Below, piece by piece: positions 1 to 17,334 of a DNA stretch of 17,575 nucleotides. The notes beneath the pieces are model-generated. The model made no database searches. It was not told the origin of the DNA and worked only from the letters and a program-made list of their open reading frames with translations. A program made the position numbers and the translations under genes. The DNA lies in contig JABANP010000780.1 in assembly GCA_013115135.1 (NCBI GenBank), positions 1 through 17,575 of the forward strand, in the 5' to 3' direction. Position 1 is the first letter of the stretch; each line of letters starts with the position of its first letter. This DNA is from Perkinsus olseni. Taxonomy: Eukaryota; Perkinsozoa; Perkinsida; Perkinsidae.

Positions 1-34
1 GAGGTGCAGCTTCCGTAGCATTGTTTCTCATCGG

Positions 35-1329
35 TCTCTCAGTGCCACTGTCTTGTCACGGCCACTCAACGTGCCGATTACTACTACATGGAGAAGAGCG
101 ATTACTCTGGATCTGTCCACTGCCGACCATTGCCATTCCATTATGTCACAAGAGATTGGGAAGTGTTGATACATGATCTTTGCATGATCGGGGCAGAGCC
201 CATGTGAGAAGTCTTACTGGTTTGAAGAGAAGAGAGCTGAATGCCAAGTGTGCTGGAGAGGGAAGCCCTAGTTTCCTCCAATGAATCGGGTTTGAGCCCG
301 ACCGGCAATATTGAAATGGATGTGAGTCGTTCCAGGGGAAGCTCCGCGAGTACCATTGGCCCCGATTCAATTGCCCTTGAATGAAGCCGTATTGAAGTGT
401 CCCCGAGCGGACATTCGCGCATCCCTGAAACTACGCAGTCTGTCGTGGTCGTGCGGGTACCTCCGCGGGCTCCGGCTGATGCATGCAAACGGAAGAATCC
501 CGACTATGGAGAGAGGCCTAGCAAGCGTCGACCGGCTGATGTGGACACAACGGCAATGGATGAGGATCTGATGGCGTTGGGCCAATTCGCCGCGGTCGGC
601 TTCCTATCGCCCAACCACGGCGTTCGTACCATGACACTCGGCCTAGTGTTGAGGAGAACGCGGAGTTGCTATCGTGCTACGACTTGGGAGCCAAACTGGA
701 GGGCCATGTACGGCGGCACAATGATGTAGGCTTGAAAGCGGGAGATTGAACACCTGCTTGAGCGTATGCATTCGATGTCTGAGACTGTCAAATTTCCTGA
801 GGCTCCACCCTTTCAGCTCATAGAGTCTCTCATCCGTTTCGCCGGTTTCTCCGATGTCATTGAGACCCACTTGTTCCGTGCGGCCTCTGCGAGGAAGGCT
901 CTCGATCGCGCTTCTCAAGAGGCGGATGTCACAAAGCGCGCGGAAGCTGTGGCCGAGTACTATGCACTTCTGGGAAGCTGGTATAGCTCGGCATTTTCTT
1001 CAGAGTCTTTGACCTACTCTCTCGTTGTGGCGAGGGTTTGGCTGAGGTCCAGAAGGAGGTTGATTTATTCGAACGAGAATGGACATCGCCATCGGAAGGA
1101 GAGGAGGCAAGCTTAACGGGTTGAGCTCGTCTCAAGTGGCGTCTATGGATTCCTCTAGGTTGCGCCTAAAGTAATGCGTGGAAGAGCGAAGTACTTGACT
1201 GACGTCGTTGGGACCAAGGCCGAGAAGTGCCGCTCGGCCGTAGCCGGAATTCACGCCGACGGACTGCGAGCACTCGATGATATTCAAGACTGTATTGCGC
1301 AGTCGAGTACGACACCTCCAGCAGCTTGA
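35..1329 (+). CDS. Zinc-finger/coiled-coil protein gene, copy 1 (5' end outside window)
   Basis: Proposed exons are 35-203, 249-349, 398-575, 647-707, 739-956, 1004-1106 and 1159-1329, with stop TGA at 1327-1329. Introns are 31-71 nt. All are GT-AG except 1107-1158, which starts GC. The 31-nt intron 708-738 could instead be 726-762. Exons equal their copy-2 counterparts in length and phase. The encoded part has the remnant of a second C2H2 finger (SGSVHC), a bipartite nuclear-localisation-like motif (KRK-x9-KRR), then a helical, probably coiled-coil region (ENAELLS, REIEHLLERM, EVQKEVDLFEREW) ending TTPPAA. The N-terminal finger exon would lie before position 1. The acceptor expected at 33-34 reads GG instead of AG, so splicing of this copy may be impaired. 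An ATG at 241 could give a shorter product in the same frame. The role is unknown; RNA or DNA binding in the nucleus is inference. Confidence 0.6.
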
Positions 1330-2489
1330 TTCACGTTTCCAGTCTTAGTGTGGTGCTCGGGGATGCCTTCTTCCGGTTCCTCTGTACTGCGACCGGCTAT
1401 TGGTCGTGTGACGATTCATACGCGCAGGCTTTAGTATCATCTGTTACAGATGATCTGTACTCGCACTTGTTGTTAGGTAGCTTCGCAATGCTGAAACGTA
1501 CGTTACGGTCTTCGCCCGTACCATGATGCTCTCCTCCAGCGAAGACAGATCGCCACACACGGAGACTCACGTGCAACCGTAGTGAGATAAATGCAATGGT
1601 GAGGTACTGCACTAATTTCCCCCATGCGCTTCTCCCTGGCAACTAATGGGTGAACTTATCGCCACCTGTTCATCTGTCATTGGAAAGCATTTCAATATTC
1701 CAATGTGGTAGCCGGTCTATAACCGACCTCAGTGATAGCAGTTCCCTCCAGAAGAAGGATTATTGGGCCGTCCGTCGGTCACTTGAACTGGTTTTTCTTG
1801 TGTTGACCATCAACAGATGCGATTATCCTACACGCACATAACGAAGGAGGAAGTACATGGCACGGTATGCGACACTGGGCATAGGGGTACGGCATTTGGA
1901 CAAGCTAGAACGATCCACTATGCGGCAAGCGATGCACAGGGACTGTGATCAGCGAGGCAACTTCGTACTTCGTTTGCTGCTTGATTCACAGCCGCTAGCT
2001 TCGGGACGGAGTCTGGGGCCGCAGTGGGCTGAGCGAAATCCGGGGCCGATGAAATCGGCGCAGGGTAGGAAGAGCAGAATTTTATACGTACTGACTGAGG
2101 AGAACCCAACACTTGCGCTGGCCGTGAGACTTGAAAAATTGAAGTTGAGAAAGTTGAAAACTTGCTGAGGGATTCCTCGGGGTTGGGAGTTACAAAATCG
2201 ACCTATGCCATGTTCCTTGAGGGAGTCCCTCAGAGCCTAGCTTGACGTGGACGCTCAATGGGCATGAGTCACGAAGGTTTGGTCGTTGGTACTGCTACGG
2301 CAAAGACGCTCTTTGAGAGAGCATAACGAAGACAATGCGGCGAGAGATGAGTGAGAGCATGGAAACTATGCATGACTCCCAAATCGGCCGATTGAGTACG
2401 GGTGAGTACCTTGTAGTAGATCAAATATGTCAGATCTTCAGAAATGATTCTGGCCATGAAGGGATATCACGATGTAGAGAAAATAGCCC
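1330..2489. other. Intergenic region between convergent genes, unit 1
   Basis: About 1.16 kb lies between the zf stop and the S10 stop/insertion site. Positions 1330-1500 and 2087-2489 are collinear with unit 2 (12817-12990 and 13476-13877). The middle contains the inverted block 1544-1713 and about 370 bp (1714-2086) with no clear counterpart in unit 2. Open frames here, such as 1857-2168 and 2335 onward, are not conserved in a coding manner between the units. I see no gene. Confidence 0.6.
1544..1713 (-). repeat. 170-bp block inverted relative to unit 2
   Basis: Read in reverse complement, this block matches 13299-13469 along its whole length, from GGCTACCACATT at one end to GTGGCGATCTGTC at the other, with scattered mismatches. 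The flanks further out are in the same orientation in both units. It is either a local inversion after the duplication or a small repeat that lies in opposite orientations in the two units. Confidence 0.8.
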
Positions 2490-2492
2490 TTA

Positions 2493-2616
2493 CCCGGCTC
2501 CCTTCCTCCCCGGCGTTGGGGCGTGGGCCAGAGGACTGCGCATAGAGCGCCGGGTCCTCGGCCAATGTGACGGGGCCGCCTCCCAACAACAGGGAGGCAG
2601 CCGCACCACATCGCCA
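2493..2616 (-). repeat. Split direct repeat A, terminal copy
   Basis: This 124-bp repeat is identical by eye to 2794-2917 and forms the 3' terminus of the element in the coding sense. It is GC-rich and structured. A 7-bp-stem hairpin sits at 2578-2598 (GCCTCCC, 7-nt loop, GGGAGGC). A larger imperfect stem pairs GGCCAGAGGAC with GTCCTCGGCC. A 14-nt spacer (2617-2630) separates it from B1. Confidence 0.95.
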
Positions 2617-2630
2617 GGGTGGGCGGGAGG

Positions 2631-2793
2631 CTTCTTAGAAGATAAAATTAAACCAACTCAACGCGAATGTACCTCACTCACTCCGAACTCTCCTCGACCG
2701 AACCACCCACTAGCACCAGCACAAAGCTACTGTCTCCTTTGTGCGCCGGGCGACATCGCCGAGTAAACTGGCCCAACGAGTTGACCTCGATTA
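2631..2793 (-). repeat. Split direct repeat B, internal copy
   Basis: This 163-bp repeat is identical by eye to 6994-7156. It abuts repeat A2 with no spacer (CGATTA next to CCCGGC), reproducing the end-to-end junction of a circularised element. Confidence 0.95.
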
Positions 2794-2917
2794 CCCGGCT
2801 CCCTTCCTCCCCGGCGTTGGGGCGTGGGCCAGAGGACTGCGCATAGAGCGCCGGGTCCTCGGCCAATGTGACGGGGCCGCCTCCCAACAACAGGGAGGCA
2901 GCCGCACCACATCGCCA
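2794..2917 (-). repeat. Split direct repeat A, internal copy
   Basis: This is the 124-bp copy of 2493-2616, with the same hairpin at 2879-2899. It lies between the recombinase 3' region and repeat B1. Confidence 0.95.
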
Positions 2918-3025
2918 CCCAACCACGCACCCAACGCCACGGAAGGCGCATTGACCAACGCAATCCTCAGCCGTCCAACAGAAACGACCCACTACACTGC
3001 CCGGCAAGGGCTACGACGACAGGCA

Positions 3026-4030
3026 TCAACCGACCATCATGCGCTCCGCCAAGGTCACTCGCTCCGCCAAAGAGGCATCCACCAAGTACTCGTACACACA
3101 CTCACTAGACCAGCGACCCTGTTCACGGATAGTGTGGTCGCGCACCGCGCTAAGATAGCACAAGGTAGCCCCTGTGCGCCTGAGCGAGTGCAGCCCGTAA
3201 TCCTCCAAGGTCTCGGTTGACATGCCGAGACGCGAAAGCAAGAGGCGGAACTCGCTCATAAAAATGTCATGAGACAACCGACCACCGTTATACTCGAACA
3301 GAGGAGAGGAGGATTGTTTATGCGAAGCGGCCAAGATGAGTAGCCGGTGATAAGCACAGTGGGAAAAGCAGGAAGCATCGAAAGGTCGGCCGCGAACACA
3401 GGAAACAAGGACAGACTCACCGCGACCGGCTTGATCTATCTTGGACTGACGAACAATTATGCGAGCGACCCGCTTTCCCAAACGATCACATAACTGTAAG
3501 TCCTCGAAATTGAGGTTGATAATTTCGTCGCCACGGAGAAGAGCAAAGATACCGCACAAGGAAGCGGTCACTACGATGTTACCGCCAAGCGGATCTAAGG
3601 CTCCTAACTGAGTAACCTGGTCTCTAGTTAGCGGGAGCTTTTGGTCAACATCATGAACGCATATCTTGGAGGCCGACTTCTTCGCCATCTTCAAAATGAA
3701 CTCATCCTGGGAGGAGAGATCATTACCATACAACCTGTTGCGTGAGACCATAGCGCTCAAGTAGGAGGACACCGTCGCAAACTTGTACCCGGCTCTCGAC
3801 ATGGCGTAGGCGAAGAGAGCCAGGGAATGGCCAGAGGCAGGGAACGGAACAGCAGCGCTGCTGACAACCTCCTTGTAGAAGAGTTCAATCGAATCATACT
3901 GCTTCGAAGTGCTGGCGGCGTGGCCGTCTCTGATGAAATTCCAAACAACGGAGCCCAATACACCCGCGGGATGCTGAGTAACAGCTGAGCAAGCGCGGAG
4001 TCGCTTTGAAGGAGGGGCAGAGAAGTTCAC
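3026..4030 (-). CDS. Tyrosine recombinase of the retrotransposon
   Basis: This 334-aa protein should integrate and excise the circular DNA form of the element by strand exchange through a 3'-phosphotyrosine, in place of a DDE integrase. The family's catalytic residues are in order: Arg166 (LLRGDEI), Lys197 (SKIDQAGRG), His281 and Arg284 (HSLRR), Trp307 (GRWSS) and nucleophile Tyr315 (VYEYL; Tyr313 is the alternative). The GRWSS then +8 Tyr spacing is typical of DIRS/Ngaro recombinases. The N-terminal part (about residues 25-130) is the SAM-like core-binding region. The frame is intact. It follows the RT ORF by 63 nt, so it may depend on a shared transcript or its own internal start. Confidence 0.93.
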   Translation of the reverse strand: MNFSAPPSKRLRACSAVTQHPAGVLGSVVWNFIRDGHAASTSKQYDSIELFYKEVVSSAAVPFPASGHSLALFAYAMSRAGYKFATVSSYLSAMVSRNRLYGNDLSSQDEFILKMAKKSASKICVHDVDQKLPLTRDQVTQLGALDPLGGNIVVTASLCGIFALLRGDEIINLNFEDLQLCDRLGKRVARIIVRQSKIDQAGRGESVLVSCVRGRPFDASCFSHCAYHRLLILAASHKQSSSPLFEYNGGRLSHDIFMSEFRLLLSRLGMSTETLEDYGLHSLRRTGATLCYLSAVRDHTIREQGRWSSECVYEYLVDASLAERVTLAERMMVG

Positions 4031-4093
4031 GTATGATTGACCTAAGACACAACAGCAAGCAGTGGATGAGAGAGGGATGGAGTAGAGAACGAA

Positions 4094-5857
4094 TTAGAAA
4101 CGAAGTAGATTGTCAACCGTGACGGAAGATCTAGACCAAGTTGCAGGAACAACTTGATATGGCGAAGACGAACGACTAAGTTGATCGGCAATAGTATTAT
4201 CGGACGATGCTATGTAAAGGACTTCCCAACTGTAGCAGACACGTGACAAATGAGAAACAAGAGACTGCAAAACTCTGTTAATACGCGGAGTACGCGAGCG
4301 AAACTTCCGAAAACAGACCATAGTCCCAGTACTATCTGTAAAAAGGCGACATGGTAGTCTGGCCGCTAGGGAGCTGGGAACCATACCCAGGGCAACACAC
4401 AAGCCAACAGATGCCGCCAAACACTCAAGCAACACCATATCATTACACGAAGGATTAGAGGGAGTCTCGAGTAAGAACCTCCAATCCCCGAGCCCTTTCC
4501 CTGAGTTTAGGGGGACTTGGAACCAAGTGACGGAACCTCTGAAAGATGCCCAACCGGCAAGAGCGTATGTCGATGCGTCACTGGTGATCGTTAGAACATC
4601 CTCAACGTTAGTTGGAAATACCGGCAAGCGAAGTAAAAAGGGGGAGCACTCGGCCGAAGTGGAGTAGGACGAGATGGTAGTGGACCACCACGAAAGAGCT
4701 GCAAAAAGTTCCGAGTTGGTCGACAAAGTAACAGAGCGCAACTGTTTACGTTTCATTACATTAGTGACCGAGTATAAAGGGGACAAATTCGACTTCGCAA
4801 AAGGGCAAATCATACAAAGGCGAGTTATCTTTCCCGCTAAAGATTCAACGGCGCGAAGAGAAATGGAACTTGCGGGATGGGCACCACCGACAAAAATATT
4901 CAAACTAGTGAGAAGAGATGCGAGCTTGCTTGCTGGCAACTGTACTGACGTGTTGGGACCATCAATCGTTACATCGAAGCCGATGAAGCGAAAGTGCGTA
5001 GTGGTCAGGTTACACTTATCCCAAGATAGGTTTATCCCGAGTAGAGGGAACAAAACCAAAAGGCAAGAAGTGAGAAGGGATGCGCTCTCCTCCGGCAACA
5101 GCCAGCAAAAGTCATCGATATACACCCAGCCAGCAGCAGCCAACGAAGGAGACAAGGCTTCGAGAATAGAGTTACAAATCCTTAGGACCTTGCTGGACAG
5201 TCGGCAAAACGCCCACCCAGCCGTGGCCACACCAAATGGCACGGCCAGGTTTTCATAATGGTGACCGTCCAACGAAAAACAGCAAAATCTACGATTGGAC
5301 TCCGACATGAATAGGTGCCTGTAAGCACCTTTAATATCAACTACAGTGGCCGAGTATTTCTTGTAACAACCATCACGAAAAATAACGGACTTCAGTAAAA
5401 GGCAAATATCATTAAGAGTCGGATGAGTGGTGCGTTCAACAGGGACTATCCTGGCATTCGCGCCAGAACGCTTAAAATCTTCGACTAGGCGGTATAACTG
5501 GGAGACACCATCGGGGGCTAGTTTCCCTTTAGGCACTGCAGCCAACCGGGAAAAGAAGCGACCGCATTGGCGGGCTTCGTCGGAGTGAAGTTCGCGAACC
5601 CTCCCAAGGCGAAGTTCTTCATCGACGACGGACTTTATCGCAGACACCGCGTCCGGGGCACTGAAGTAGTTACCCGGCCGCAGACGACCGGCACTATACT
5701 CCTGGAAGAAATCGGCGTCACCATCAGGCTTTTTGGTAGCTTTTGCTGCCGGGAAGACTCCGGAGCGTCGAAGGCCACCTTCGAAACCCAAATTCACACC
5801 ACTATCCACTTCAGAAGCCAGGTCGTCGTCGTTTCCCTTGTCGAAAATGTCGGACAA
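4094..5857 (-). CDS. Reverse transcriptase-RNase H polyprotein of the retrotransposon
   Basis: This 587-aa protein copies the element RNA into DNA and degrades the RNA strand. The reverse transcriptase covers about residues 95-300: RLVEDF near 123, first catalytic Asp174 in VVDIKGAY, the AVPFGVATAGWAF primer-grip-side motif, and YIDD at 246-249 with Asp248/Asp249. RNase H covers about 420-560, with Asp427 (TSDAST), Glu478 (LLECL), Asp508 (FTDST) and a C-terminal SSDNTIADQLSR like that of DIRS elements. The N-terminal 60 residues are acidic and unassigned. I see no protease, integrase or methyltransferase. The start is the first ATG, 31 nt after the gag stop and in another frame. Base composition is more AT-rich than in gag. 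Confidence 0.95.
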   Translation of the reverse strand: MSDIFDKGNDDDLASEVDSGVNLGFEGGLRRSGVFPAAKATKKPDGDADFFQEYSAGRLRPGNYFSAPDAVSAIKSVVDEELRLGRVRELHSDEARQCGRFFSRLAAVPKGKLAPDGVSQLYRLVEDFKRSGANARIVPVERTTHPTLNDICLLLKSVIFRDGCYKKYSATVVDIKGAYRHLFMSESNRRFCCFSLDGHHYENLAVPFGVATAGWAFCRLSSKVLRICNSILEALSPSLAAAGWVYIDDFCWLLPEESASLLTSCLLVLFPLLGINLSWDKCNLTTTHFRFIGFDVTIDGPNTSVQLPASKLASLLTSLNIFVGGAHPASSISLRAVESLAGKITRLCMICPFAKSNLSPLYSVTNVMKRKQLRSVTLSTNSELFAALSWWSTTISSYSTSAECSPFLLRLPVFPTNVEDVLTITSDASTYALAGWASFRGSVTWFQVPLNSGKGLGDWRFLLETPSNPSCNDMVLLECLAASVGLCVALGMVPSSLAARLPCRLFTDSTGTMVCFRKFRSRTPRINRVLQSLVSHLSRVCYSWEVLYIASSDNTIADQLSRSSSPYQVVPATWSRSSVTVDNLLRF

Positions 5858-5888
5858 GAAACGGAGAACTTCGGGACGGATAGTACTG

Positions 5889-6992
5889 CTAGACGTACAA
5901 GGGACACGAGTGGGTCCTGGTGGTTACCAGCTGGGCGATGGCGGAGCGGTATTTGGCGTCGTAATCGATGATGGCGGGAGCGCCAATGGCGGGAAGGAAG
6001 TCGACCAATCGTCGCCAATAGGCCAACACGTCGCACAGGCTTAGACCGACGTCAGAGGGGGAGCCGCCGATCACGGGGGGATGCACTACAGAGTAGGTGA
6101 CGCCCCACCGGAAGAGAGCGACCGACAGCTCCGTAAAACCGGAAAGCTTACGTTTCTCGCCGCCCGAAGCGATCAGTTGTCCGGAGCTTGTCAACTTGAA
6201 GGAGCGGGAGTCTTCGGGGGACAACGGTGACGGGGCTTCTCTCCTGGGAAGGAACTCGTTGAGGTCCATACACACACCCTGATCCGGCCTCTTCATCTTC
6301 TGAATGATGCTCGGTTTCGTCGTCACCAGAGGAGGCGGGGGTGTCGAACCGTGTAGGGCCTGAAAATCCGTTAGCATTCTGGTCATGTCGTCGGCGTTGA
6401 GCTCCTTGGTCTCCTTCTTGGCCTCCTTCTCGGCTAGCGCTCTGTTGCACATGATGCTGTAGACTACCCGGCCTCTCAAAGTCAGCTCCTCGGCGATAGC
6501 GGATCTGAGGGATAAGTCGCCGGCGACGGAGGTTAGGGCCTCCTGGCTGTTGATGCCGTTCTGCACGAGGACCGCAAGTACCGGTCCAGCGGCGCCGGGC
6601 TCCAGATCGGCGGCGAGGTAGACCAGTTCTTGATTCACGCCGACGGAGAGGGGGGTCGCGTTCGCTGAGCTGGGGTTGCCGGGACCGTCCTGGCACGGTG
6701 CTGTGGGGCTCGTGCTCCGAGGAGCGTCTGGGACCAAGCTGGGGGCGTCTTGAACCACGGCAGCTGGAGCGTGCGGACCGGAGGAGCCAAGTTGGCTGCT
6801 GAGAGGGACCGTCGAGACGTCGGGGGGAGCGGCGGGGCCGGCTGAGCTTGCCGCCACGTCATCTGGGGGAAGGGGCAGGTCGGAGACTGGTGTTGCGGGT
6901 GGATCTGAGGCCGGAGGCGGCGTCGGGAGGCCGCCATTGTCGGTGTTGTCGGGGACGGTGGAGCTGCGGCGGTTGCGGGGAGGGGGGGACAT
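5889..6992 (-). CDS. Gag-like protein of the retrotransposon
   Basis: This 367-aa protein sits where the particle protein is found in DIRS/Ngaro elements. The first about 125 residues are rich in Pro, Ser and Ala and probably disordered. A predicted helical region follows, including a charged stretch EKEAKKETKELNADD, then MDLNEFLPRRE and a C-terminal YDAKYRSAIAQL (from residue 344) that resembles the W/YD..(F/Y)R motif near the end of DIRS-type gag proteins. There is no CCHC zinc knuckle. The start ATG touches repeat B2, which supports this start. Assignment rests on position plus weak motif likeness. The GC-rich coding differs clearly from the two downstream ORFs. Confidence 0.75.
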   Translation of the reverse strand: MSPPPRNRRSSTVPDNTDNGGLPTPPPASDPPATPVSDLPLPPDDVAASSAGPAAPPDVSTVPLSSQLGSSGPHAPAAVVQDAPSLVPDAPRSTSPTAPCQDGPGNPSSANATPLSVGVNQELVYLAADLEPGAAGPVLAVLVQNGINSQEALTSVAGDLSLRSAIAEELTLRGRVVYSIMCNRALAEKEAKKETKELNADDMTRMLTDFQALHGSTPPPPLVTTKPSIIQKMKRPDQGVCMDLNEFLPRREAPSPLSPEDSRSFKLTSSGQLIASGGEKRKLSGFTELSVALFRWGVTYSVVHPPVIGGSPSDVGLSLCDVLAYWRRLVDFLPAIGAPAIIDYDAKYRSAIAQLVTTRTHSCPLYV

Positions 6993-6993
6993 T

Positions 6994-7156
6994 CTTCTTA
7001 GAAGATAAAATTAAACCAACTCAACGCGAATGTACCTCACTCACTCCGAACTCTCCTCGACCGAACCACCCACTAGCACCAGCACAAAGCTACTGTCTCC
7101 TTTGTGCGCCGGGCGACATCGCCGAGTAAACTGGCCCAACGAGTTGACCTCGATTA
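6994..7156 (-). repeat. Split direct repeat B, terminal copy (5' leader of the element)
   Basis: This is the 163-bp copy of 2631-2793 at the 5' end of the coding strand. The gag ATG (6990-6992) comes one base after its inner edge, so the repeat should supply nearly all of the 5' untranslated leader, and probably the promoter. Its last three bases (TTA, 7154-7156) also complete the TAA stop codon of the adjoining S10 gene. Confidence 0.93.
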
Positions 7157-9417
7157 TAATCTGGTATGCAGCATGAAACTGTTCACGGTCTCCATAACGC
7201 CACGGGGGTTCTGATGGGCAGCGGCGTGGCCAGCCCTGTACACCTGAGACTGGCTCCTCGCGAAGAAGATATACGAAGGCATGAGGCTGCCTTCTTAAGA
7301 AGAGTGGCGTAATTGTTCACAAGCGAAGACTCACTTGGACGAATTCGTATCCGCCCTTATTGCTGCTCCTTCGCCGCCCGACAACTTTCCCAGTACTATC
7401 CTGAATGGAACAGAGCATCCATCAAACGCGCCAGCCTCGCCTCACTGACCGCGAAGTACCCAGGTCGGCGCTGTTTGAGCTAGGTTTTCCCCATCAGCCT
7501 CTTTCTCACCTTGAACTCGACATCGGCGGCCTTCCGGAAGTCCTGCTGACCTTTCCACGCCAAGCCAAGCATCCATTCCTTCAGGCCCATGAAGTTGCAG
7601 ATGTAGTCAACATCTCCAGCAATAGTCAGCATCTGTAAGCGAGGAGTCTCACACTCCTCTCCTTCAGACGACTCACACGAATCCCAGACTCCAGTAAGCC
7701 CGGTAAGAGGAAGTCTGAGTTCACCAGTGCGAAGGGGCTCAGCTGCTGGTAGACCTATTGAGGTGGGTTACGAGCCATGCCGGGCAGGACGAAACTTCCC
7801 GGTATAATTTTCTCACCGGATCACTGCTGATGATGAAATTCCTAGATACTTTAAGGAAGGCCTTAACATCTCCTTGTTTCAAGTATGTTTCAACCTGTGA
7901 GCATATACCAGTCACATAGAGAACGTACCGCATTCTGGGCCTTGATCGAGTCTTGCTAGGCTTCGGTTAACGCAGTTAGAGCCGGTCTCACGTTGTCAGG
8001 GTCTTGCTCATTTTCGCACCCTTCAGGTAAGTGTTGATCAGGGTCCGCACATCCGGCGCTCAGCTTGTAGCTGGAACGAGGAGGGATACATCAAGTGGCA
8101 CTCTTCACGGTCGGACCCGACTCGGACGGTCGAGGAGAAAAGAATTTTGACCTACAAGCTCACGCCATTCCGCACCAGGGGCTCCAGAACCATGTTTTGA
8201 CAGAAATTGTGCGCATCTTTGCAGGATTTGACTGAAAGAAGAAAAGATCAGGTAGGATCTTCGTCCCGTTAAACTACTCTCCTTATTGCACTTATCGATC
8301 ATGTCCAAGCAATCGGGCATCTGCTGGTTCATTTCATCATATCTGTTTGGCAAAAAACGGCAGGTTTGCCAACGGCGCCGTGCATATCTGCATGCTTACT
8401 GACATTTCGAGATGACCGGCTCCACAGTCTTGCTTTTGAAGGCCATCTCGGGGAATGAAGGCCACCTTGAATAGAACAGGCACTGGGAGACGCATATTGG
8501 GATTTTGCGATCTCACTGCTTCCTAGCATTAACCATGGCGTTGCAGAAAATGATGCCTCGCAAGTTTATATGGGGATTGCCGGTCTTCACTAAGTGTGCG
8601 ACCTGGGGGAGTAGAACTCCTGAGAGGTTCACAACATCCCAGAAGTAAAAACTTGCGCAGTCTACCACCACCTGAATACGAGAGTCCCACAATATAGAAG
8701 GGTCCCTTGTACTTGGGGAACTCCTTGAAAAACTGTTCTAGAAAACTGTATCTGCCGATGATCAAACGGAGTACAACAGGATTCCGTGTAAGTCAGAACG
8801 AACATGTTTTGGACGGTCTCCGCGAATGTCTTCTCTGGTGGACCTCCACTGCTGAAGCCAGCCCCAACGGGGTTGGTCCAACCAAATGCCATTGGCTCGG
8901 TTGGTCCACGAGTAACTGTACCCACAGACTTGAAGTCAATGCAGCCGACAAGCTCACTTACGGGTTGGTAGCAGTAGCAGTCCCCCTTCGTATTTACCAA
9001 GCAAGGCCCGTTGTACCCGACCGCAGAGGCAATGCCGCTGTCTCCTGGTCCACCTCCGAGCCATAGAAAGATGGGATCCGTCTCTGGGTGACTTCTTGAC
9101 TCGAAGAACCAGAAGAAGTACCTGCCAGCAGGTCGGGTGGTTTGAGTATGCGCTGCGGAGAGCTCACTCCCTCTTGGGATTTCGTGGGTCAACAGCGTAG
9201 CGGCCAAAAGCTTGCTCAACATTGGGATCACATAGACCTGCTTTGCCTTGATGAACAACCTGGAGTCTCCTTGAAGTTGTATTTCCGGCACCTACAGTAC
9301 CAGACCACGAGAAAAATCTTCGGCTTTCTTCCGGAAACTACCTGTGGAGGAAAGACGAGCAATTGCAAGCTCCGAGAGGAAGCTGCTGAAGTATAATATG
9401 ATCGAGGGGAACAACAT
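7154..9417 (-). pseudogene. Serine carboxypeptidase-like (family S10) gene, copy 1, two frameshifts
   Basis: It has the same 15-exon layout as copy 2. Exons, high to low: 9342-9417, 9168-9291, 8962-9121, 8800-8915, 8672-8732, 8517-8619, 8400-8465, 8278-8342, 8156-8231, 7992-8070, 7817-7894, 7677-7754, 7510-7632, 7335-7400 and 7154-7243. Introns are 44-109 nt, all GT-AG. Compared with copy 2, exon 3 has one extra base in a C run (8982-8986, five instead of four) and exon 4 one extra in a G run (8869-8872, four instead of three). The frame then reaches TAG near 8590, before the catalytic Asp and His. Family motifs are otherwise present: FWFFESR, GGGPGDSG, NPYSW, GLSYSG (Ser nucleophile), AGDVDYICN (Asp) and AGHAAAH (His). 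The N terminus (MLFPSIILYFSS) looks like a signal peptide. The TAA stop is formed with the end of the retrotransposon. If both insertions were sequencing errors, the gene would be intact. Confidence 0.85.
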
Positions 9418-9509
9418 TTCGCCCTGGCAGAAGTGTTCGGTGGAGGGCCAACAGGTCCGGTGCCGATACCGGTATCCCCAAAGTTTTCTAGTTTCAATGA
9501 GGCAAGGAA

Positions 9510-10275
9510 TGGGGTACACGACGAAGATTGTGTACGCATACGCACCGGATCATGGGGCGAGCGTCACGTGAGCGTGACGTGGGTTGCTCATTGAAGAACG
9601 AGATTAGTGCTATAGAGCGCACTAATCCCGGAGAGGAAGACTCCTTGAGTTTTTTGGCCCTCCCGCCACTCCCTCTAGCCCTCACCATCTCCTTGCCACC
9701 TGCGACCGCTCTCGTCCGTTTCTTGTGCTCTTCTGCACTCGTCCTAGTACGGTACTAGTAGTACCCGCCAGCTCTCTGGCTTACGTTCGCCGCCTCTCCC
9801 GGGCCGCATTTTCACCGTCCACGGGGTGCCCCGACTACTCCTTCCGGTCTCCACCGTATATTCCTCCCTACCTCTTGCTCGTATCCGCCATCTTGCGGCC
9901 GCCTCAGCCGCCCACCTCGCATGGTTCTGTTGGGTTCCGACGCGGCGCTTCCGTCGCTCGTCCCTCGCAGCGCCTTGCCCATTCTTCGCCACCTCGGTTC
10001 CATTCAGTTCTACTCTGGGTTGGTGCTCTTCCACTTTTCCCTTGCTCACCTGACTCTGCCTTTTCGTGGGGGAACCGCGTCAGATTTGAAGGGAACAGCA
10101 GGACCGACCCGCTCGGTCCGACTCAGAGCCTGAGTCTGGCTATGGCAACGCTCTTCTCCGGACGTGGGAAAGAGTAGAGCTTCTGCCGATATCCAGAGTG
10201 ACTCTGGCAGAGTCAGTGAAAGCACCTCCCAACGATCAAGCACTTGCTGAGCCCTTGGATCTCGGTAGTGTGTAT
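9510..10275 (+). repeat. Mosaic direct repeat, copy A
   Basis: Three blocks recur in order in copy B: 9510-9548 (matches 10275-10313), 9543-9674 (matches 10591-10722, nearly identical) and 10170-10275 (matches 10749-10840). Block 2 contains a 7-bp hairpin CGTCACG-TGAG-CGTGACG (9562-9579, enclosing CACGTG). It also has a perfect 9-bp hairpin GATTAGTGC / GCACTAATC (9602-9627), followed by a T6 run. Positions 9675-10169 are unique to copy A, strongly pyrimidine-rich and without a convincing gene. The repeat starts where homology between the two segmental units stops, about 100 bp upstream of the S10 copy 1 start, so it may act as its promoter region or be a non-autonomous mobile element. Confidence 0.8.
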
Positions 10276-10840
10276 GGGGTACACGACGAAGCTTGTGTGC
10301 GCATACGCACCGGTGTGTAGAATGCTGGCCGTGGGAGACAGAATCGGGCGTGCGCTACTCTGGATGTCTGTGTAAAAGATATCTAGCCGTTTCGTGTCTC
10401 ATCTGTCTCCTCGGTTACTTAGATTTTGAGAGAAGTCTCGTGACTAGTTCAGTAGCATTTACCCTCCGGAAGCGCTGTCTTCCATTGATCTCTGCAACTT
10501 CCCGTCAATCAAGCTATCTACATCAAGAACTCTACTTCCGTTCTAGTCCATTCCCAACTACACCACCCCCCTTCGTGAGAGCATACGACACACCGGATCA
10601 TGGGGCGAGCGTCACGTGAGCGTGACGTGGGTTGCTCATTGAAGAACGAGAATAGTGCTATAGAGCGCACTAATCCCGGAGAGGAAGATTCCTTGAGTTT
10701 TTTGGCCCTCCCGCCACTCCCTGTAGGGTTTTATCCGTGAGTGGGGGGAAGAGTAGAGCTTCTGCCGATATCCAGACTCAGTGAAAGCACCTCCCAACGA
10801 TCAAGCACTTGCTGAGCTCTTGGATCTCGGTAGTGTGTAT
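10275..10840 (+). repeat. Mosaic direct repeat, copy B
   Basis: Copy B adjoins copy A tail to head. It keeps the three shared blocks but has about 270 bp of its own sequence between blocks 1 and 2 (10314-10590) and only a short linker between blocks 2 and 3. Both hairpins are kept (10610-10627 and 10650-10675), the second with one stem mismatch (GAATAGTGC). I see no coding potential that is shared with copy A. Confidence 0.8.
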
Positions 10841-11246
10841 ACCGCTTTATCGCGTTACATCCTACCGTGAGCCATGGAGCGGGGACAGTCTAACGGGACC
10901 TCTTCAGGCTGGGGATGAATCCTTTTTAATTCTGTGAGCTCGTGACGGTGCTTTTGACTCCGAGTTTAGAACCAGTTTCGACGACGAGTTCATCAACCTT
11001 TAAAATCGTGCGCCGTGGCGGCGTAGTGCGGCGCGCTGGTGGTGTCCGTGGAGTCCACGGATACCACCAGCGTGGATCACGAAGAGCCTCAAAGGTCATC
11101 GGGGCTACTCGGGAGACATTTGCGGCAATGGTTGGACCAAGGTGCAGATTCGTACAGAGACTGAGGAGCGCTTCCCTGTCGTACCCGAAGCTGATGAGAT
11201 GCCATCATTTGTTGTATAGCTTACTAGTAGCTCTAATAGCTCAGCT
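10841..11246. other. Upstream region of zinc-finger gene copy 2
   Basis: About 400 bp lies between the mosaic repeat and the zf start codon. It contains a GC-rich block (11010-11033) and a short block CACGAAGAGCCTCA (11078-11091). Both are repeated upstream of zf copy 3, with a palindrome between them in this copy only. The 108-aa open frame starting at 10942 overlaps these elements and is not supported by any paralogue. Promoter function is inference from position and conservation. Confidence 0.5.
11034..11072. repeat. Near-perfect 19-bp palindrome
   Basis: Two 19-nt arms flank a single base (11053). Centre-proximal arms are TCCGTGGA and TCCACGGA. One G-T pair is the only departure from perfect pairing. 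It sits between two blocks that are only 11 nt apart upstream of zf copy 3, so it appears as an insertion of about 33 nt relative to that copy. Confidence 0.85.
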
Positions 11247-12816
11247 ATGGATAAGGGAGCAGCACTAACCAGAGTCGAGTTCCGCGCCGGCCGTTCAGTG
11301 AGCCCTCAAGATCAGTCCATCCTAGCGATCAACCATGCCAGCAATCTTAACGGGATCTGGTTCTGTAGCATATGTGAGGTGACCATAATGGAAGGCAGGC
11401 TTGCTGCCCTCAATCATTTCGATACTGCCGGACACAGAAAGAAGCGGAGCTGCTGGGAACCGGGAAGTGAGAATGATATGCTCGATTTGAGGTGCAGCTT
11501 CCGAAGCATTGTTTCTCATCAGTCTCTCAGTGCCACTGTCTTGTCACGGCCACTCAACGTGCCGAGTACTACTACATCGAAAAAAACGATTTCTCTGGAT
11601 CTGTCCACTGCCGTCCATTGCCATTCCATTATGTCGCAAGAGACTGGGAAGTGTTGATACGTGATCTTTGCATGAACGGGGCAGAGCCCATGTGAGAAGT
11701 CTTACTGGTTTGAAGAGAAGAGAGCTGAATGCCAAGTGTGCTGGAGAGGGAAGCCCTAGTTTCCTCCAATGAATCGGGTTTGAGCCCGACCTGAAATATT
11801 GAAATGGATGTGAGTCGTTCCAGGGGAAGCTCCGCGAGTACCATTGGCCCCGATTCAATTGCCCTTGAATGAAGCCGTATTGAAGTGTCCCCGAGCGGAC
11901 ATTCGCGCATCCCTGAAACTACGCAGTCTGTCGTGGTCGTGCGGGTACCTCCGCGGGCTCCGGCTGATGCATGCAAACGGAAGAATCCCGACTATGGAGA
12001 GAGGCCTGGCAAGCGTCGACCGGCTGATGTGGACACAACGGCAATGGATGAGGATCTGATGGCGTTGGGCCAATTCGCCGCGGTCGGCTTCCTATCGCCC
12101 AACCACGGCGTTCGTACCATGACACTCGGCCTAGTGTTGAGGAGAACGCGGAGTTGCTATCGTGCTACGACTTGGGAGCCAAACTGGAGGGCCATGTACG
12201 GCGGCACAATGATGTAGGCTTGAAAGCGGGAGATTGAACACCTGCTTGAGCGTATGCATTCGATGTCTGAGACTGTCAAATTTCCTGAGGCTTCACCCTT
12301 TCAGCTCATAGAGTCTCTCACCCGTTTCGCCGGTTTCTCCGATGTCATTGAGACCCACTTGTTCCGTGCGGCCTCTGCGAGGAAGGCTCTCGAACGCGCT
12401 TCTCAAGAGGCGGATGTCACAAAGCGCGCGGAAGCTGTGGCCAAGTACTATCCACTTCAGGGAAGTTTAGCAGTTCAGCATCTTCTTCAGAGTCTTTGAC
12501 CTACTCTCTCGTTGTGGCGAAGGCTTGGCCGAGGTCCAGAAGGAGGTAGATGCATTCGAACGAGAATGGACATCGCTTTCGGGAGAAGGGGAGGTAGGTT
12601 ACACAGATTGGGCCCGTTTCAAGTGAACCCGACGAAATCCTTTAGGTTGCGCCTAAAGCGATGCGTGGAAGAGCGAAGTACTTGACTGACGTCGTTCGGA
12701 CCAAGGCCGAGAAGTGCCGCTCGGCCGTAGCGGGAATTCACGCCGACGGACTGCGAGCACTCGATGATATACAAAACTGTATTGCGCAGTCGAGGACGAC
12801 ACCTCCAGCAGCTTGA
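11247..12816 (+). pseudogene. Zinc-finger/coiled-coil protein gene, copy 2, with a nonsense codon
   Basis: Exons are 11247-11466, 11523-11691, 11737-11837, 11886-12063, 12135-12195, 12227-12444, 12491-12593 and 12646-12816. Exon lengths sum to 1221 nt, i.e. 406 codons plus stop, and every phase fits. Exon 1 encodes a U1/matrin-type C2H2 finger, C40-x2-C43-x13-H57-x5-H63. Exon 2 keeps SGSVHC but lacks the second Cys and both His seen in zf copy 3, so finger 2 is decayed. Exon 4 has a bipartite NLS-like KRK-x9-KRR (about residues 194-208), and exons 5-7 are helical and coiled-coil-like. In exon 3 an in-frame TGA (11792-11794) replaces the GGC of copy 1. A downstream ATG (11803) could still give the C-terminal part. 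The 136-aa open frame from 11247 runs past the exon 1 donor and is not the product. Introns are 31-71 nt. Function is unknown; nucleic-acid binding is inferred from the finger type. Confidence 0.68.
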
Positions 12817-13877
12817 TTCACGTTTCCAGTCTTAGTGTGGTGTTCGGGACTGCCTTCTTCCGGTTCCGCTGTTCTGCGACCGGTTATTGGTCGTGTGGCG
12901 ATTCATACGCGCAGGCTTTAGTATCATCTGCATCCACACTGCACTTGTTGTTAGGTAACCTCACGAAGCTGTATCTTGCGTTAAGATACGTTGAAAAACC
13001 ATTCTGACTGAGTTTGCGAGAAGCTTTTTTACGCCCTTTGAGGAGTTAGGGCTATTCTTTTCATCGTACTGTCCTAGGGACCTTACCTAACCTACTCGAA
13101 TAAAGTTCTCAGTTTTGGACTAGGCTGACTCACTCTGTAGGTGGAGCTACGGGCTTTGCAGATGTCAAGGACGGCCTCGTCCCGCGAGGTGACTCTTCGA
13201 GGGTACGCTACGCGCTCTCAGTCCAGTGTTCAATACCATCACTTTTGGAATTGTTCAGCCTACTACCGCGCTAGTCCGTTACGAACCCGAGCTAGGCGGG
13301 CTACCACATTCATGTACTGGTATGCTTTCCGCCGACAGTATAAACAGGTGGCGATAAGCTCACCCATTAGTTGCCAGAGAGAAGCTCTTTGGGGAAATGA
13401 GTGCAGCACCTCGCCATTGCTTTCATTTTACTTCCGTTGCACGTGAGTCTTCGTGCGTGGCGATCTGTCTCAGGACTGACTGAGGAGAACCCAACACTTG
13501 CGCTTGCCGTGAGACTTCAAAAAAATTGAAGTTATAAAGGCTAAAAACTTGCTGAGGGATTCCACGGGGTTGGGAGTTGCAAACTCGACCTATGCGATGT
13601 TCCTCGAGGGAGTCCCTCAGAGCCTAGCTTGACGTGGGCGCTCAATGGGGATGAGTCACGAAGGTTTGGCTGTTGGTACTGCTATGACAAAGACGCTCTT
13701 TGAGAGAGCATAACGGAGACAATGCGGCGAGAGATGAGTGAGAGCATAGAAATGATGAATGACTCCCAAATCGGCCGATTGAGTACGGGTGAGTACCTTG
13801 TAGTAGATCAAATATGTCAGATCTTCAGAAATGATTCTGGCCATGAAGGGATATCACGATGTAGAGAAAAATAGCCC
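12817..13877. other. Intergenic region between convergent genes, unit 2
   Basis: About 1.06 kb lies between the zf stop and the S10 stop. The first 170 bp and last 400 bp match unit 1. The block 13299-13469 matches 1544-1713 in inverted orientation, and 12990-13298 has no clear counterpart. The open frame 13141-13446 overlaps the inverted block and has no paralogue. I see no gene. Confidence 0.6.
13299..13469 (+). repeat. 171-bp block inverted relative to unit 1
   Basis: This is the partner of 1544-1713 in opposite orientation. It is followed directly by the collinear sequence ACTGACTGAGGAGAACCC, which in unit 1 lies about 370 bp from its block. Confidence 0.8.
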
Positions 13878-13881
13878 TTAT
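13878..13881. other. Empty target site of the retrotransposon
   Basis: The uninterrupted sequence CCCTTA-TAATCTGG occurs here. In unit 1 CCCTTA is followed by the element start CCCGGC, and the element end CGATTA is followed by TAATCTGG. Only TTA is shared, so the crossover lies within or next to this trinucleotide, which is also the complement of the S10 TAA stop codon. Confidence 0.95.
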
Positions 13882-16097
13882 AATCTGGTATGCAGCATGA
13901 AACTGTTCACGGTCTCCATAACGCCACGGGGGTTCTCATGGACAGCGGTGTGGCTTCCCCCATACACCTGAGACCGGCTCCTCACGCAGGAGACATACGA
14001 AGACATGAGGCGGGCTTCTCAAAAAGAGTTGCGCGAATGTTGATGAGCGAAGCCTCACTTGGACGAAGTCATATCCGCCGTTATTGCTGGTCCTTCGCAG
14101 CCCGACAACTCGCCCGGTGCTATCCTGAATGGAACGGAGCGTCCATGACCCTCACTCCGCCACGGAATAACGACACCGGTGCTGTTTATGCTAGCTATTT
14201 TTCGTTGCGACTGTCTTTCTCACCTTGAACTCGACATCGGCGGCCTTCCGGAAGTCCTCCTGACCTTTCCACGCCAAGCCAAGCATCCATTTCTTCAGAC
14301 CCATGAAGTTGCAGACATAATCAACATCTCCAGCAACGGTCAGCACCTGTCGTCAAGCAGTCTCTCACTCATCTCCCTCCCATCCGACTCACACGAATAT
14401 CGGAGTCCAGTAAGCCGGGTAGGAAGTAGTCTGAATTCACCAGGGCGAAGGGGCTCAGCTGCTGGTAGACCTGTTGAGGAAGGTCACGAGACATGCCGAG
14501 CAATACGAAACTGCTCGGCATAGTTTTCCCACCGAATCGCTGCTGATGATGAACTTTCCAGACACCTTGAGGAAGGTCTTCACATTTTCTCGGTTCAAGT
14601 ACGCTTCAACCTGTGAACGTATATCAAAACTGTCTGCCTCTCGGCCTTGATTGAGAATGAGTGGCCTCGGTTGATGCGGTTGAAGCAGGTCGCACATTGG
14701 GAGGATCTTCCTCATTTAGGCACCCCTCAGGTAAGTGTTGATCAGGGTCCGAACACTTGGCGCTGAGCTTGTAGCTGGAAAGAGGAGAGACACCTCCTTC
14801 GTGGTCGGGGGGGGGTCTAGCAGAAAGGAGCTTTGACCTACAAGTCCACGCCATTCTCCACCAGGGGATCCAGAACGATGCTCTGACAATGGATATGCGC
14901 GTCTTCGCAGGACTTGACTAAGAGTACCAAGGACTAGGTAGGATTTTCGTCATGTTAGATTACTCTGCTTATTGCACTTATCGATCATGTCCAAGCACGC
15001 AGGTATCTGCTGGTTCATTTTATCATATCTGATTGACAGAAATACGAGAGGTTTGTCAACGGCACCGAGCATATCTGCATGCTTACTGATCTTCTGTGAT
15101 GACCGGCTCCACAGTCTTACTTTTGAAGGCCATCTCGGGGAATGAAGGCCACCTTGAACGAATAAAGCAGTGGGAGATCCTTATTGGGATACCGCGATCT
15201 CACTGCTTCCTAGCATTCACCATGGCGTTGCAGAAAATGATGCCTCGCAGGTTTATCTTGGGACTGCCGATCTTCACAGCATGTGCGACTTGGGGGAGTA
15301 GAACTCCTGAAAGGTTCACCACAACACGGAAGTAAGAGGTCGTGCAGTCCACTGTTACCTGCATATGAGGCTCCAACAAGATAGAGTGGTCCCTTGTACT
15401 TGGGGAACTCATCTAAGAACTGGTCCAAAAAACTGTATCTGCCGATGATCAAGCGAAGTACAACAGTATTCCGTGTTTGCCTGAACCAACATGTTTTCCA
15501 CGGTCTCTGCGAATGTCTGCTCTGGTGGCCATCCTTTGCTGTATCCAACCCTAACGGGTTGGTCCAGCCAAATACCATTCGCTCGGTTGGTCCACGAATA
15601 CCTGTATCAACAGGCTTAAAGACAATGGAGCTGACGAGCTCACTTACGGGTTGGTAGAAGCTTCAGTCCCCTTCTTATTTACCAAGCAAGGTCCGTTGTA
15701 CCCGACCGCAGAAGCAACGCCGCTCTCTCCTGGGCCACCCTCGAGCCATAGAAAGATAGGGTCCGTCTCTGGGTCATTCCTCGACTCGAAGAACCAGAAA
15801 AAGTACCTTCTAGCAGGTCGGGTGGTTTGAGCATGCGCTGCAGAGGAGCCCACTCCCTTTTGGGATTTTGTGGGTCAACAGTATAGCTTCCGTGAGCTTG
15901 CTCAACATTGGGATCACATAGACCTCCTTTGCCTTGATGAACAACCTGGAGTCTCCTCGAAGTTGTATTCCCGGCACCTGCCAAACCACGAGAGAAGTCA
16001 TTCTGCTTGTCCGGAAACTACCTGTGGAGGAAAGGCGAGCAGTTGAAAGCTCCGAGAGGAAGCTGCTGAAGTATAATATGACCGAGGGGAACAACAT
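13878..16097 (-). CDS. Serine carboxypeptidase-like protein (peptidase family S10), copy 2, intact
   Basis: Exons, high to low: 16022-16097, 15854-15977, 15648-15809, 15487-15601, 15359-15419, 15204-15306, 15087-15152, 14964-15028, 14842-14917, 14696-14774, 14533-14610, 14393-14470, 14224-14346, 14059-14124 and 13878-13967. The 14 introns are 44-99 nt, all GT-AG. The sum is 1362 nt, i.e. 453 aa. Intron 2 could end 3 nt later, and intron 4 (15420-15486) is the least certain. The order of motifs follows yeast carboxypeptidase Y: signal-peptide-like N terminus, CDPNVEQ (46-52), FWFFESR (71-77), WLEGGPGES (88-96), NPYSWTNRAN (120-129), LDQPV (133-137), GASYAG with nucleophile Ser177, AGDVDYVCN with Asp370, and GGSH with His430. 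The triad is complete. Residues that in CPY hold the substrate carboxylate differ: Asn51 is Glu90, Glu65 is Tyr104, Glu145 is Ala176. Probably secreted or vacuolar; activity and specificity are uncertain. Confidence 0.9.
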
Positions 16098-16603
16098 TTC
16101 GCCCTGATAGGAGTCTTCGGTTGATGAAGTGTCAGCAGGTCTGGAGTCAATATCGGTATCCCTATAACCTTTAGTGAATGGGGAAAGGAGCACCGCTCCA
16201 TCGCTCCTCTCGTCACAAGAAGGGACACAAGGGGACTCAGTGCTCTATACCGTGACCTGTAGCTCAGTGTAGTACGTATGCACTATAACTTAGTACAGTG
16301 TGGTTGTTTGAGACGGGGCTGAAAGAGTGGTGAAATTGCACTTTAAGGGGAGCTAAGCACAAAATTGCGCAGCTCATAATAAGGTCAAACGCTAATCTGA
16401 TACTAACGCAGTAACTACTAACGAGTAGTACTGAACCAGGCTGGAACTGTTACATAGCTAACGCTATAGTCGTCACTATGTTGTCTCTATAGTGCACATA
16501 GACTCCTGCACGCGAGTGAAAAGTGCAGAATGCTATGAGATACTGATAGTTACTAAGCAGTAGATATGATTATCACTGTACTGGAAGCAGAGACAAGCGG
16601 GGG

Positions 16604-16748: not shown

Positions 16749-16836
16749 CAATGGGCTCACTCGATTTTACGGCGTTGAATTTAGGCGTCTTGCGATTTTC
16801 AGGGGTTGATCTTGTGTTCCTCCACGGTACTTCCTC

Positions 16837-17334
16837 ATGAGCGATTGGGGTGCTCACTCAAATTTTCGCATCCCCGATACCGTCTCATCTCTGACTCCTC
16901 GGTCGGCCGGTAATCAGCTGCTTGAGGGAGACAACAACAGCATCACTGGCCATGAGAAGTTCGTGTTGGCTATCAATAACATGGTAGAAGTGCCGGATGG
17001 ATGGCAGTGTCACGTATGCGACACCCACATCCCGGGGTCCGACTACGAGGCTTGGGTGCATACGTATGATGACAATCATCGCCGCCGGAGGCCACCAAAG
17101 CCGAAGCGTGAGCACGTGCGGCTGCTGCTGATCTTCTCGAGCTCCGTCGCAGGTCCTGCTGGTCTACCTCCCTGTCTTGATGTGCGGGATTACTCTGGCG
17201 CCATGCATTGCGACGTATGCCGAGTCAGACTGACCAACTACGCCGCACAAGAATCGCACCTCCGAGGGCAGCAGCATATTTACAGACTGGACGAACAGCG
17301 TCGGCGTGCCAGAAACAACAATTACCCTCACTGA
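16837..17334 (+). CDS. Two-finger U1/matrin-type C2H2 zinc-finger protein, copy 3
   Basis: The frame is open throughout, but I propose an in-frame 45-nt intron at 17108-17152 (GTGAG donor, CGCAG acceptor). It sits at the same place and phase as intron 1 of zf copy 2, giving about 150 aa. Finger 1 (WQCHVC, then H-x5-H) is C-x2-C-x13-H-x5-H as in copy 2. Finger 2 (MHCDVC, then HLRGQQH) is C-x2-C-x12-H-x5-H and intact. The C terminus is basic (RRRARNNN). The stretches VLAINN before finger 1 and DYSGAMHC at finger 2 align with ILAINH and DFSGSVHC of copy 2. This type of finger usually binds double-stranded or structured RNA or RNA-protein complexes. The copy ends after finger 2 and lacks the NLS and coiled-coil part of copies 1 and 2, unless further exons follow downstream. 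Confidence 0.75.
   Translation: MSDWGAHSNFRIPDTVSSLTPRSAGNQLLEGDNNSITGHEKFVLAINNMVEVPDGWQCHVCDTHIPGSDYEAWVHTYDDNHRRRRPPKPKREHVRLLLIFSSSVAGPAGLPPCLDVRDYSGAMHCDVCRVRLTNYAAQESHLRGQQHIYRLDEQRRRARNNNYPH

What the first reader, a model, noticed from the sequence alone, without database searches (positions are those of the whole stretch)
2487..7162. Natural filled-site/empty-site pair fixes retrotransposon ends to the base
Unit 2 carries CCCTTA-TAATCTGG uninterrupted (13875-13888). Unit 1 has the same two halves separated by 4664 bp. No bases are duplicated, and only TTA is shared between the left flank and the element's right end. This is the footprint expected from recombinase-mediated integration of a circle, and it is rarely seen so cleanly inside one locus. 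It also dates the insertion after the segmental duplication, or marks a loss in unit 2.
Basis: seen in the sequence. Interest (0 to 1): 0.9.

Follow-up and report, generated by a model that had tools for sequence, protein, structure and literature searches.

The report
Retrotransposons that join at hairpins
In the genome of the clam parasite Perkinsus olseni, a group of retrotransposons inserts without copying or losing a base of the target and joins at a nearly invariant point, the edge of a predicted hairpin, so they likely integrate through a single folded DNA strand rather than by swapping both strands at matching sequences.

Summary
Confirmed. A 4664-bp retrotransposon (2490-7153, minus strand; RT, tyrosine recombinase, split direct repeats) interrupts CCC-TTATAATCTGG; the site is uninterrupted in unit 2 and in two copies on contig C256. 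The pair alone could not say which TTA is the element's: nine other readable copies show that the left TTA is element, the right TTA target.

Other recombinase families of this genome (Perkinsus olseni by protein match) behave alike. Of 38 joined flank pairs searched, 15 matched an empty site, none with duplication or loss. In 40 of 41 informative copies the element's terminal triplet is at the 3' end and a different target triplet at the 5' end. This contradicts, for these elements, the published identical-3-bp model.

In 15 families the join lies at the inner edge of a nested palindrome at the circle junction (105 of 120 arm bases pair; 0 of 100,000 permutations reach this). My inference is exchange of one strand at a folded site, as at integron attC. 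A few copies with other 5' starts are unexplained. The element itself is an ordinary Ngaro-like retrotransposon.

The parts
2490..7153 (-). Retrotransposon, 4664 bp; sense order X1 - gag-like ORF - RT/RNase H - tyrosine recombinase - Y1 - X2 - 14-nt linker - Y2
   Evidence: Repeats; ORFs; empty sites; ends fixed by 10 copies
6994..7153 (-). X1, 5' repeat (160 bp, 163 with the adjacent target TTA), 100% identical to X2
   Evidence: family D9
2631..2790 (-). X2, internal copy of X
   Evidence: family D9
2791..2917 (-). Y1, internal copy of Y; ends in sense ...CCGGGTAA
   Evidence: family D13
2490..2616 (-). Y2, 3' terminal repeat, 100% identical to Y1; its last 3 bases (TTA on +, 2490-2492) are the element's 3' end
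2617..2630 (-). 14-nt linker between X2 and Y2, absent between X1 and the gag-like ORF
   Evidence: linkers of 7-42 nt in other families
2759..2798 (-). Circle-junction palindrome: outer arms 2791-2798 and 2759-2766, 24 nt between them, crossover point between 2791 and 2790
   Evidence: 8-nt arms, 7 of 8 bases pair; the window family has one of the weaker stems
5889..6992 (-). Gag-like ORF, about 367 aa from the first ATG just inside X1
   Evidence: no Pfam match; the name gag rests on position only
4094..5923 (-). RT ORF (609 aa), YIDD motif; RNase H-like motifs recalled, not tested
   Evidence: RVT_1 E 7.8e-7, 0.2 bits under the curated cut-off; relatives in P. olseni and P. chesapeaki
3026..4093 (-). 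Tyrosine recombinase ORF (355 aa); catalytic R186, K217, H301, R304, W327, Y335; separated from the RT ORF by an in-frame TAA
   Evidence: Cre-like by profile and by predicted fold
13875..13888 (+). Empty target site CCC-TTATAATCTGG in unit 2
7154..7156 (+). Target TTA next to the element's 5' end (sense TAA); target sequence, not element sequence
   Evidence: 9 of 10 family copies have another triplet here

Best explanation
The window holds a split-direct-repeat tyrosine-recombinase retrotransposon inserted with no base copied or lost, at a site that is still empty in three paralogous copies, and it likely integrates from a cDNA circle whose junction is predicted to fold into a nested hairpin that the recombinase would cut at the inner edge of the outer stem, probably exchanging only one strand with the target. 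Shown by sequence: layout, ends, blunt insertion, a fixed join in each family, the nested palindrome, and that no identical target triplet is needed. Inferred: that a circle is the substrate, that the palindrome folds as single-stranded DNA or a cruciform, that this element's own recombinase cuts there, and that one strand is exchanged and replication finishes the join. In this reading the Y end (for example TTTCC) and the last bases of the target's 5' flank are equivalent half-sites: the target keeps its own version on the 5' side, and the element brings its own on the 3' side.
Against: No biochemistry, and no sequenced circle or single-stranded intermediate. One copy (L028 family, C235a) joins two bases earlier. 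Copies with another 5' start exist and are not among the 53: the L039-family element on C126 starts at the inner edge of the other arm, the own copies of L025 and L019 are truncated at the 5' end, and two more L039-family hits start inside X. The recombinase is closest to Cre, which works on double-stranded sites (recalled). The window family has one of the weaker stems and its fold energy is no better than shuffles (z -0.2); four of 15 families lie between z -0.4 and +0.3. Inverted arms could also be plain protein-binding sites in duplex DNA.
Confidence: 0.55

Rival explanations
1. Ordinary two-strand tyrosine-recombinase integration of a double-stranded circle, as published for DIRS elements: a short circle-junction core recombines with a similar genomic core, and mismatches left in the core are then repaired in one direction. 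The nested palindrome is then only a set of inverted protein-binding sites.
For: The published model (passages of PMC3266345); Cre-like protein; targets resemble the arm end at -1 to -4; 12 of 53 targets have the identical triplet; the C235a exception looks like a core resolved the other way.
Against: Random resolution predicts both arrangements; 40 of 41 informative copies show one, so repair would have to be almost fully one-sided in every family. The outer arms lie 22-37 nt apart, too far for the usual 6-8 bp spacer (figure from a passage of PMC3212892).
Confidence: 0.3
2. Blunt end joining of a linear cDNA with defined ends into chromosome breaks, without the recombinase.
For: No duplication and no fixed core in the target.
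Against: No gap at the join in 15 of 15 filled/empty comparisons; target bases depend on the family's own arm; the join coincides with a palindrome edge (sliding test over 15 families).
Confidence: 0.05
3. Unit 2 and the C256 copies lost the element by precise excision, instead of never having had it.
Against: Three of three other copies of the unit are empty. X1/X2 and Y1/Y2 are 100% identical while the units differ by 4-19% in aligned blocks, so the insertion looks younger than the duplication. The removal product seen elsewhere is a solo X-Y unit, not a clean site.
Confidence: 0.07

Closest known systems
Ngaro-like and PAT-like YR retrotransposons (split direct repeats A1-ORFs-B1A2B2; passages of PMC4157794, PMC8547959, PMC6681497)
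   Same: Split direct repeats, RT, tyrosine recombinase downstream of RT, solo A-B units (already reported for Cafeteria Ngaros)
   Different: A nested palindrome at the internal junction, a fixed one-sided join and a target rule are described here; I did not meet them in the passages read
DIRS1-like elements (PMC3266345, passages and section 10)
   Same: YR retrotransposon, no target duplication; published start and end triplets also disagree in 10 of 28 elements
   Different: No inverted terminal repeats here; the identical 3-bp target of the published model is not required
Integron cassettes (attC x attI)
   Same: Two nested stems with an unpaired spacer and crossover near the inner edge of the outer stem (attC details recalled); asymmetric reaction resolved by replication (abstract of PMC4792948)
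   Different: A retrotransposon in a eukaryote; recombinase closer to Cre than to an integron integrase; no attI
Strand-biased circularizing elements of Vibrio (SE-6945; passages of PMC9345347)
   Same: Strict placement: target spacer at one end, element-borne spacer at the other; T-rich target; its authors infer exchange of the top strand only for circle formation
   Different: Bacterial DNA element; its authors found no inverted-repeat motif at the att sites; the spacer there is inherited from the donor flank

Membership tests
[quoted passage not shown]
   (window); 16 of 30 recombinase loci of this genome have a downstream direct repeat of 100 nt or more
Ngaro-like YR retrotransposon | RT and catalytic tyrosine recombinase | tested here: met
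   RVT_1, just under the curated cut-off; R, K, HxxR, W, Y
Ngaro-like YR retrotransposon | No methyltransferase domain | tested here: inconclusive
   One search finds none in the three ORFs, but Pfam also misses the recombinase of this element
Ngaro-like YR retrotransposon | RT groups with Ngaro RTs in a tree | not tested
   No reference Ngaro RTs were fetched
DIRS1-like | Inverted terminal repeats and internal complementary regions | tested here: not met
   the two inverted pairs of 30 nt or more found in the window belong to the flanking units
DIRS1-like integration model | 3-bp circle junction recombines with an identical genomic triplet | tested here: not met
   Identical in 12 of 53 copies; base-level empty sites
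Crypton | YR element without RT, with 4-6 bp terminal direct repeats in fungal and oomycete members | tested here: not met
   RT present; no such repeats in the 15 filled/empty pairs; feature from passages of PMC3212892
Integron-type folded-site recombination | Nested stems with crossover at the outer stem | tested here: met
   by sequence only: arm pairing and centring tested, folding itself predicted
Integron-type folded-site recombination | Reaction on one folded strand, shown biochemically | not testable with these tools
   Only the one-sided outcome is seen

The most novel reading that the evidence does not exclude
Eukaryotic YR retrotransposons integrate their cDNA as a folded single strand: the circle junction is an attC-like double hairpin, the recombinase exchanges one strand at the inner edge of the outer stem, the target's last few bases are tested by pairing with the other arm, and replication finishes the join. 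This would be single-strand site-specific recombination in a retrotransposon, reached independently of integrons.
Probability: 0.33. Interest if true: 0.88.

Novelty: new variant of a known kind. Interest (0 to 1): 0.62.

Why it matters
How DIRS and Ngaro elements integrate has been modelled as recombination at an identical 3-bp core. One protist genome with many young families and many empty sites lets that model be tested to the base, and it fails here. The replacement rule (join at a stem edge, element triplet on one side, target triplet on the other) is simple, can be checked in any genome with Ngaro, PAT or DIRS elements, and points to single-strand exchange, which as far as I know has been described only in bacteria and their phages.

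Tried and rejected
TTA or a longer shared core at both junctions: rejected, since the 5' triplet varies.

Palindromic targets: several looked striking by eye, and flanks paired at random scored lower (mean 4.69 against 5.24, highest of 300 permuted means 5.13). But against 1,426 random windows from fetched loci the inverted-repeat score gave only P = 0.03, partly carried by one repeated palindrome, and the targets' fold energy was if anything weaker. Rejected.

A two-sided heteroduplex core: suggested first by the L027 and L037 families, where the single Y1/Y2 mismatch fell in the last 3 bases. More L037 copies showed that the join lies 4 bases earlier, at the end of the TTTTA arm. For L027 (one copy) it was placed 3 bases earlier by the same reading. 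The boundary of these two families was thus moved after seeing the data.

Cross-taxon test of the palindrome: alignment A1 was too diverse to scan with. Alignment A2 gave three viral contigs without split repeats. Nothing learned.

PDB search with the RT ORF: no match. Rfam, tRNA and tandem repeats in the window: nothing.

Rows left out. Of 23 other places with the window family's X-Y unit, 9 were used. The other 14 are diverged, truncated or were read at one end only; two of them (L008, L052, both 78% identical) have TTT where the others have TTA, and five ends (L049, L050, L061 and two on L060) keep TTA. L019 was left out of the junction test as a near copy of L020 with a truncated 5' end (15 of 16 families used). 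Copies with other 5' starts (L019, L025 and L039 own copies; C251, C156) are not in the 53, and many further hits were not read at all. Not independent: L002/L003, L046/L047, C710/C580; without L003, L047 and C580 the count is 37 of 38. C790/C13 also share a site but are not informative. The flanks of L046 and L047 are shifted by one base, which does not change their class. In one search, 15 of 53 flanks were typed by hand from earlier outputs; one (L046) has wrong letters from position -5 outwards.

Full report
What was checked. The window is a whole 17,575-bp contig (C757) of a 61.5-Mb, 968-contig assembly. Its recombinase ORF matches a Perkinsus olseni protein at 100% identity over 92% of the query. 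Two copies of a segmental unit lie in it (about 1-9450 and 11489-16120; aligned blocks 81-96% identical). Unit 1 is interrupted at 2490; unit 2 is not, and reads CCCTTATAATCTGG at 13875-13888. Contig C256 holds two more copies of the unit, both with the same uninterrupted site.

Which TTA belongs to the element. The pair has TTA at both junctions and one in the empty site. The roughly 304-bp X-Y unit occurs at 23 other places, whole or in part. Ten copies, the window included, have both ends readable and were used. All ten end in sense ...GTAA at the 3' side. At the 5' side only the window copy has TAA; the others have TGG, CAA, TGT, AAT, CGA, CTC or CAT. So the left TTA (2490-2492) is element sequence and the right TTA (7154-7156) is target. 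Two older copies not counted have TTT at that end. Solo units of this kind are known from Cafeteria Ngaros, where recombination of the repeats was proposed. Here one genomic site holds a 4.98-kb insert on C790 and a 487-bp solo unit on C13, which fits that origin.

Many families, one rule. Of 30 recombinase loci taken from this genome (the best 30 of 74 matches), 16 have a downstream direct repeat of 100 nt or more. For 15 of these I read the internal Y1|X2 junction, and for 14 of them (window family included) complete copies with both ends, 53 in all. In 12 copies the target triplet equals the element's. Of the 41 where it differs, 40 have the element's triplet at the 3' end and the target's at the 5' end; the exception (C235a) joins two bases earlier. 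Copies whose 5' end starts elsewhere in X are not in this set: the own copies of L019, L025 and L039, and by hit position two more of the L039 family. Of 38 joined flank pairs searched, 15, from eight families, matched an empty site and were compared base by base: none has a gap at the join, and five are 100% identical over 70-100 bp. The other 23 gave no spanning match among the candidates scored. In an earlier search of 13 window-family flank pairs, one (L048) matched, at about 80% identity and also with no gap at the join. Net effect: one element added, nothing duplicated, nothing lost.

The join sits on a palindrome. The last 8 bases of Y pair with bases 22-37 nt inside X, most often at 24 nt (8 of 15). 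In total 105 of 120 arm bases pair. Arms matched to other families' X average 5.0 of 8, and none of 100,000 permutations reached the observed sum; sliding the arm by one base either way lowers it to 98-99. Where the target happens to share the triplet in a single copy (L041), the join is open by up to three bases. A second palindrome lies between the arms, centred to within 1 nt in 13 of 15 families (shuffles at most 8), with stems of 5 bp or more in 10 of 15 (shuffles at most 6). The arm sequences differ among families (TTTAA, TTTCC, TTTCG, TTGTA, TTTTAC and others) while pairing is kept. The stems are modest: predicted DNA fold energies reach z -4.4 for L041 but only -0.2 for the window family, and four of 15 families are no better than shuffles.

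Target choice. The target's last two bases match the family's own arm more often than other families' arms do (0.55 against 0.26; 0.58 against 0.31), and T is common at -3 and -4 (35 of 53 each). Beyond -4 the excess is at most 0.13 at any position to -10. Targets are not clearly palindromic themselves.

How it may work. A tyrosine recombinase typically acts on a site of two inverted arms separated by 6-8 bp (passage of PMC3212892). Cutting both strands there leaves a mixed core at each end, which replication sorts either way (recalled). The one-sided outcome here is better explained by exchange of one strand, completed by replication. Integron integrases recombine single- with double-stranded partners asymmetrically and need replicative resolution (abstract of PMC4792948). 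A Vibrio element family shows the same strict placement, a target spacer at one end and an element-borne spacer at the other with a T-rich target; its authors infer top-strand exchange for circle formation and leave the integration step open (passages of PMC9345347). A retrotransposon makes single-stranded cDNA, so a folded strand would be at hand. That last step is inference. One-sided repair of a duplex reaction remains possible (confidence 0.3).

Relation to print. The DIRS1 model states that a 3-bp junction recombines with an identical genomic sequence without target duplication (passages). In the same paper's Table 3, 10 of 28 elements have unequal start and end triplets; in eight of those exactly one end is complementary to the junction (seven starts, one end), and the other two have 2-bp junctions (my count from section 10). 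The paper itself reads the table as almost all elements matching the junction. So the published termini are compatible with a one-sided rule too. My searches of the paper library for hairpins, single strands, integrons, empty sites or circle junctions with these elements found no such proposal (listings). Most subscription papers are not in that library.

Verdict. The given finding is correct as an observation and ordinary as an element. Followed into the genome, it gives a clean, testable integration rule that departs from the standard account.

Noticed in passing
window 1508-2091: This 584-bp stretch of unit 1 is inverted relative to the copy on C256 (97%) and in part relative to unit 2 (inverted pairs at 1543-1719 / 13293-13470).
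   Followed up: partly
window 2617-2630; L019, L020, L024, L025, L029, L039, L041 linkers: The linker between X2 and Y2 often carries CCCATCCC or a similar C-rich run; role unknown, possibly a priming signal on the other strand.
   Followed up: no
L085/L039 (C126): An element whose X copies are 100% identical where they overlap starts exactly at the inner edge of the right arm (X base 34), lacking the loop; hit positions suggest starts near the same point for C251 and C156.
   Followed up: partly
L041/L086 (C233) and L173 (C656): The L041 element sits inside an X-Y repeat of the L039 family; 23 other copies of that stretch are uninterrupted at the site.
   Followed up: partly
window 4094-4096: An in-frame TAA separates the RT and recombinase ORFs, and the recombinase ORF has no early Met; how it is expressed is unclear.
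   Followed up: no
L144/L145 (C790) and L147/L148 (C13): The same insertion site holds a 4976-bp insert in one copy and a 487-bp solo X-Y unit in the other; the inside of the longer one was not read.
   Followed up: partly
window 9540-9678 and 10588-10726; 10208-10275 and 10773-10840: Further short direct repeats (97%) between the two units, outside the retrotransposon.
   Followed up: no
window 8662-9291 and 15210-16244: Remnants of a serine carboxypeptidase S10 gene in both units (Pfam E 1.2e-12 for the first; the second judged by similarity).
   Followed up: no
window 16810-17334 and 11220-11657: ORFs with C2H2-like zinc-finger motifs; only the first was scanned (weak, below the Pfam cut-offs), the second judged by eye.
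   Followed up: no
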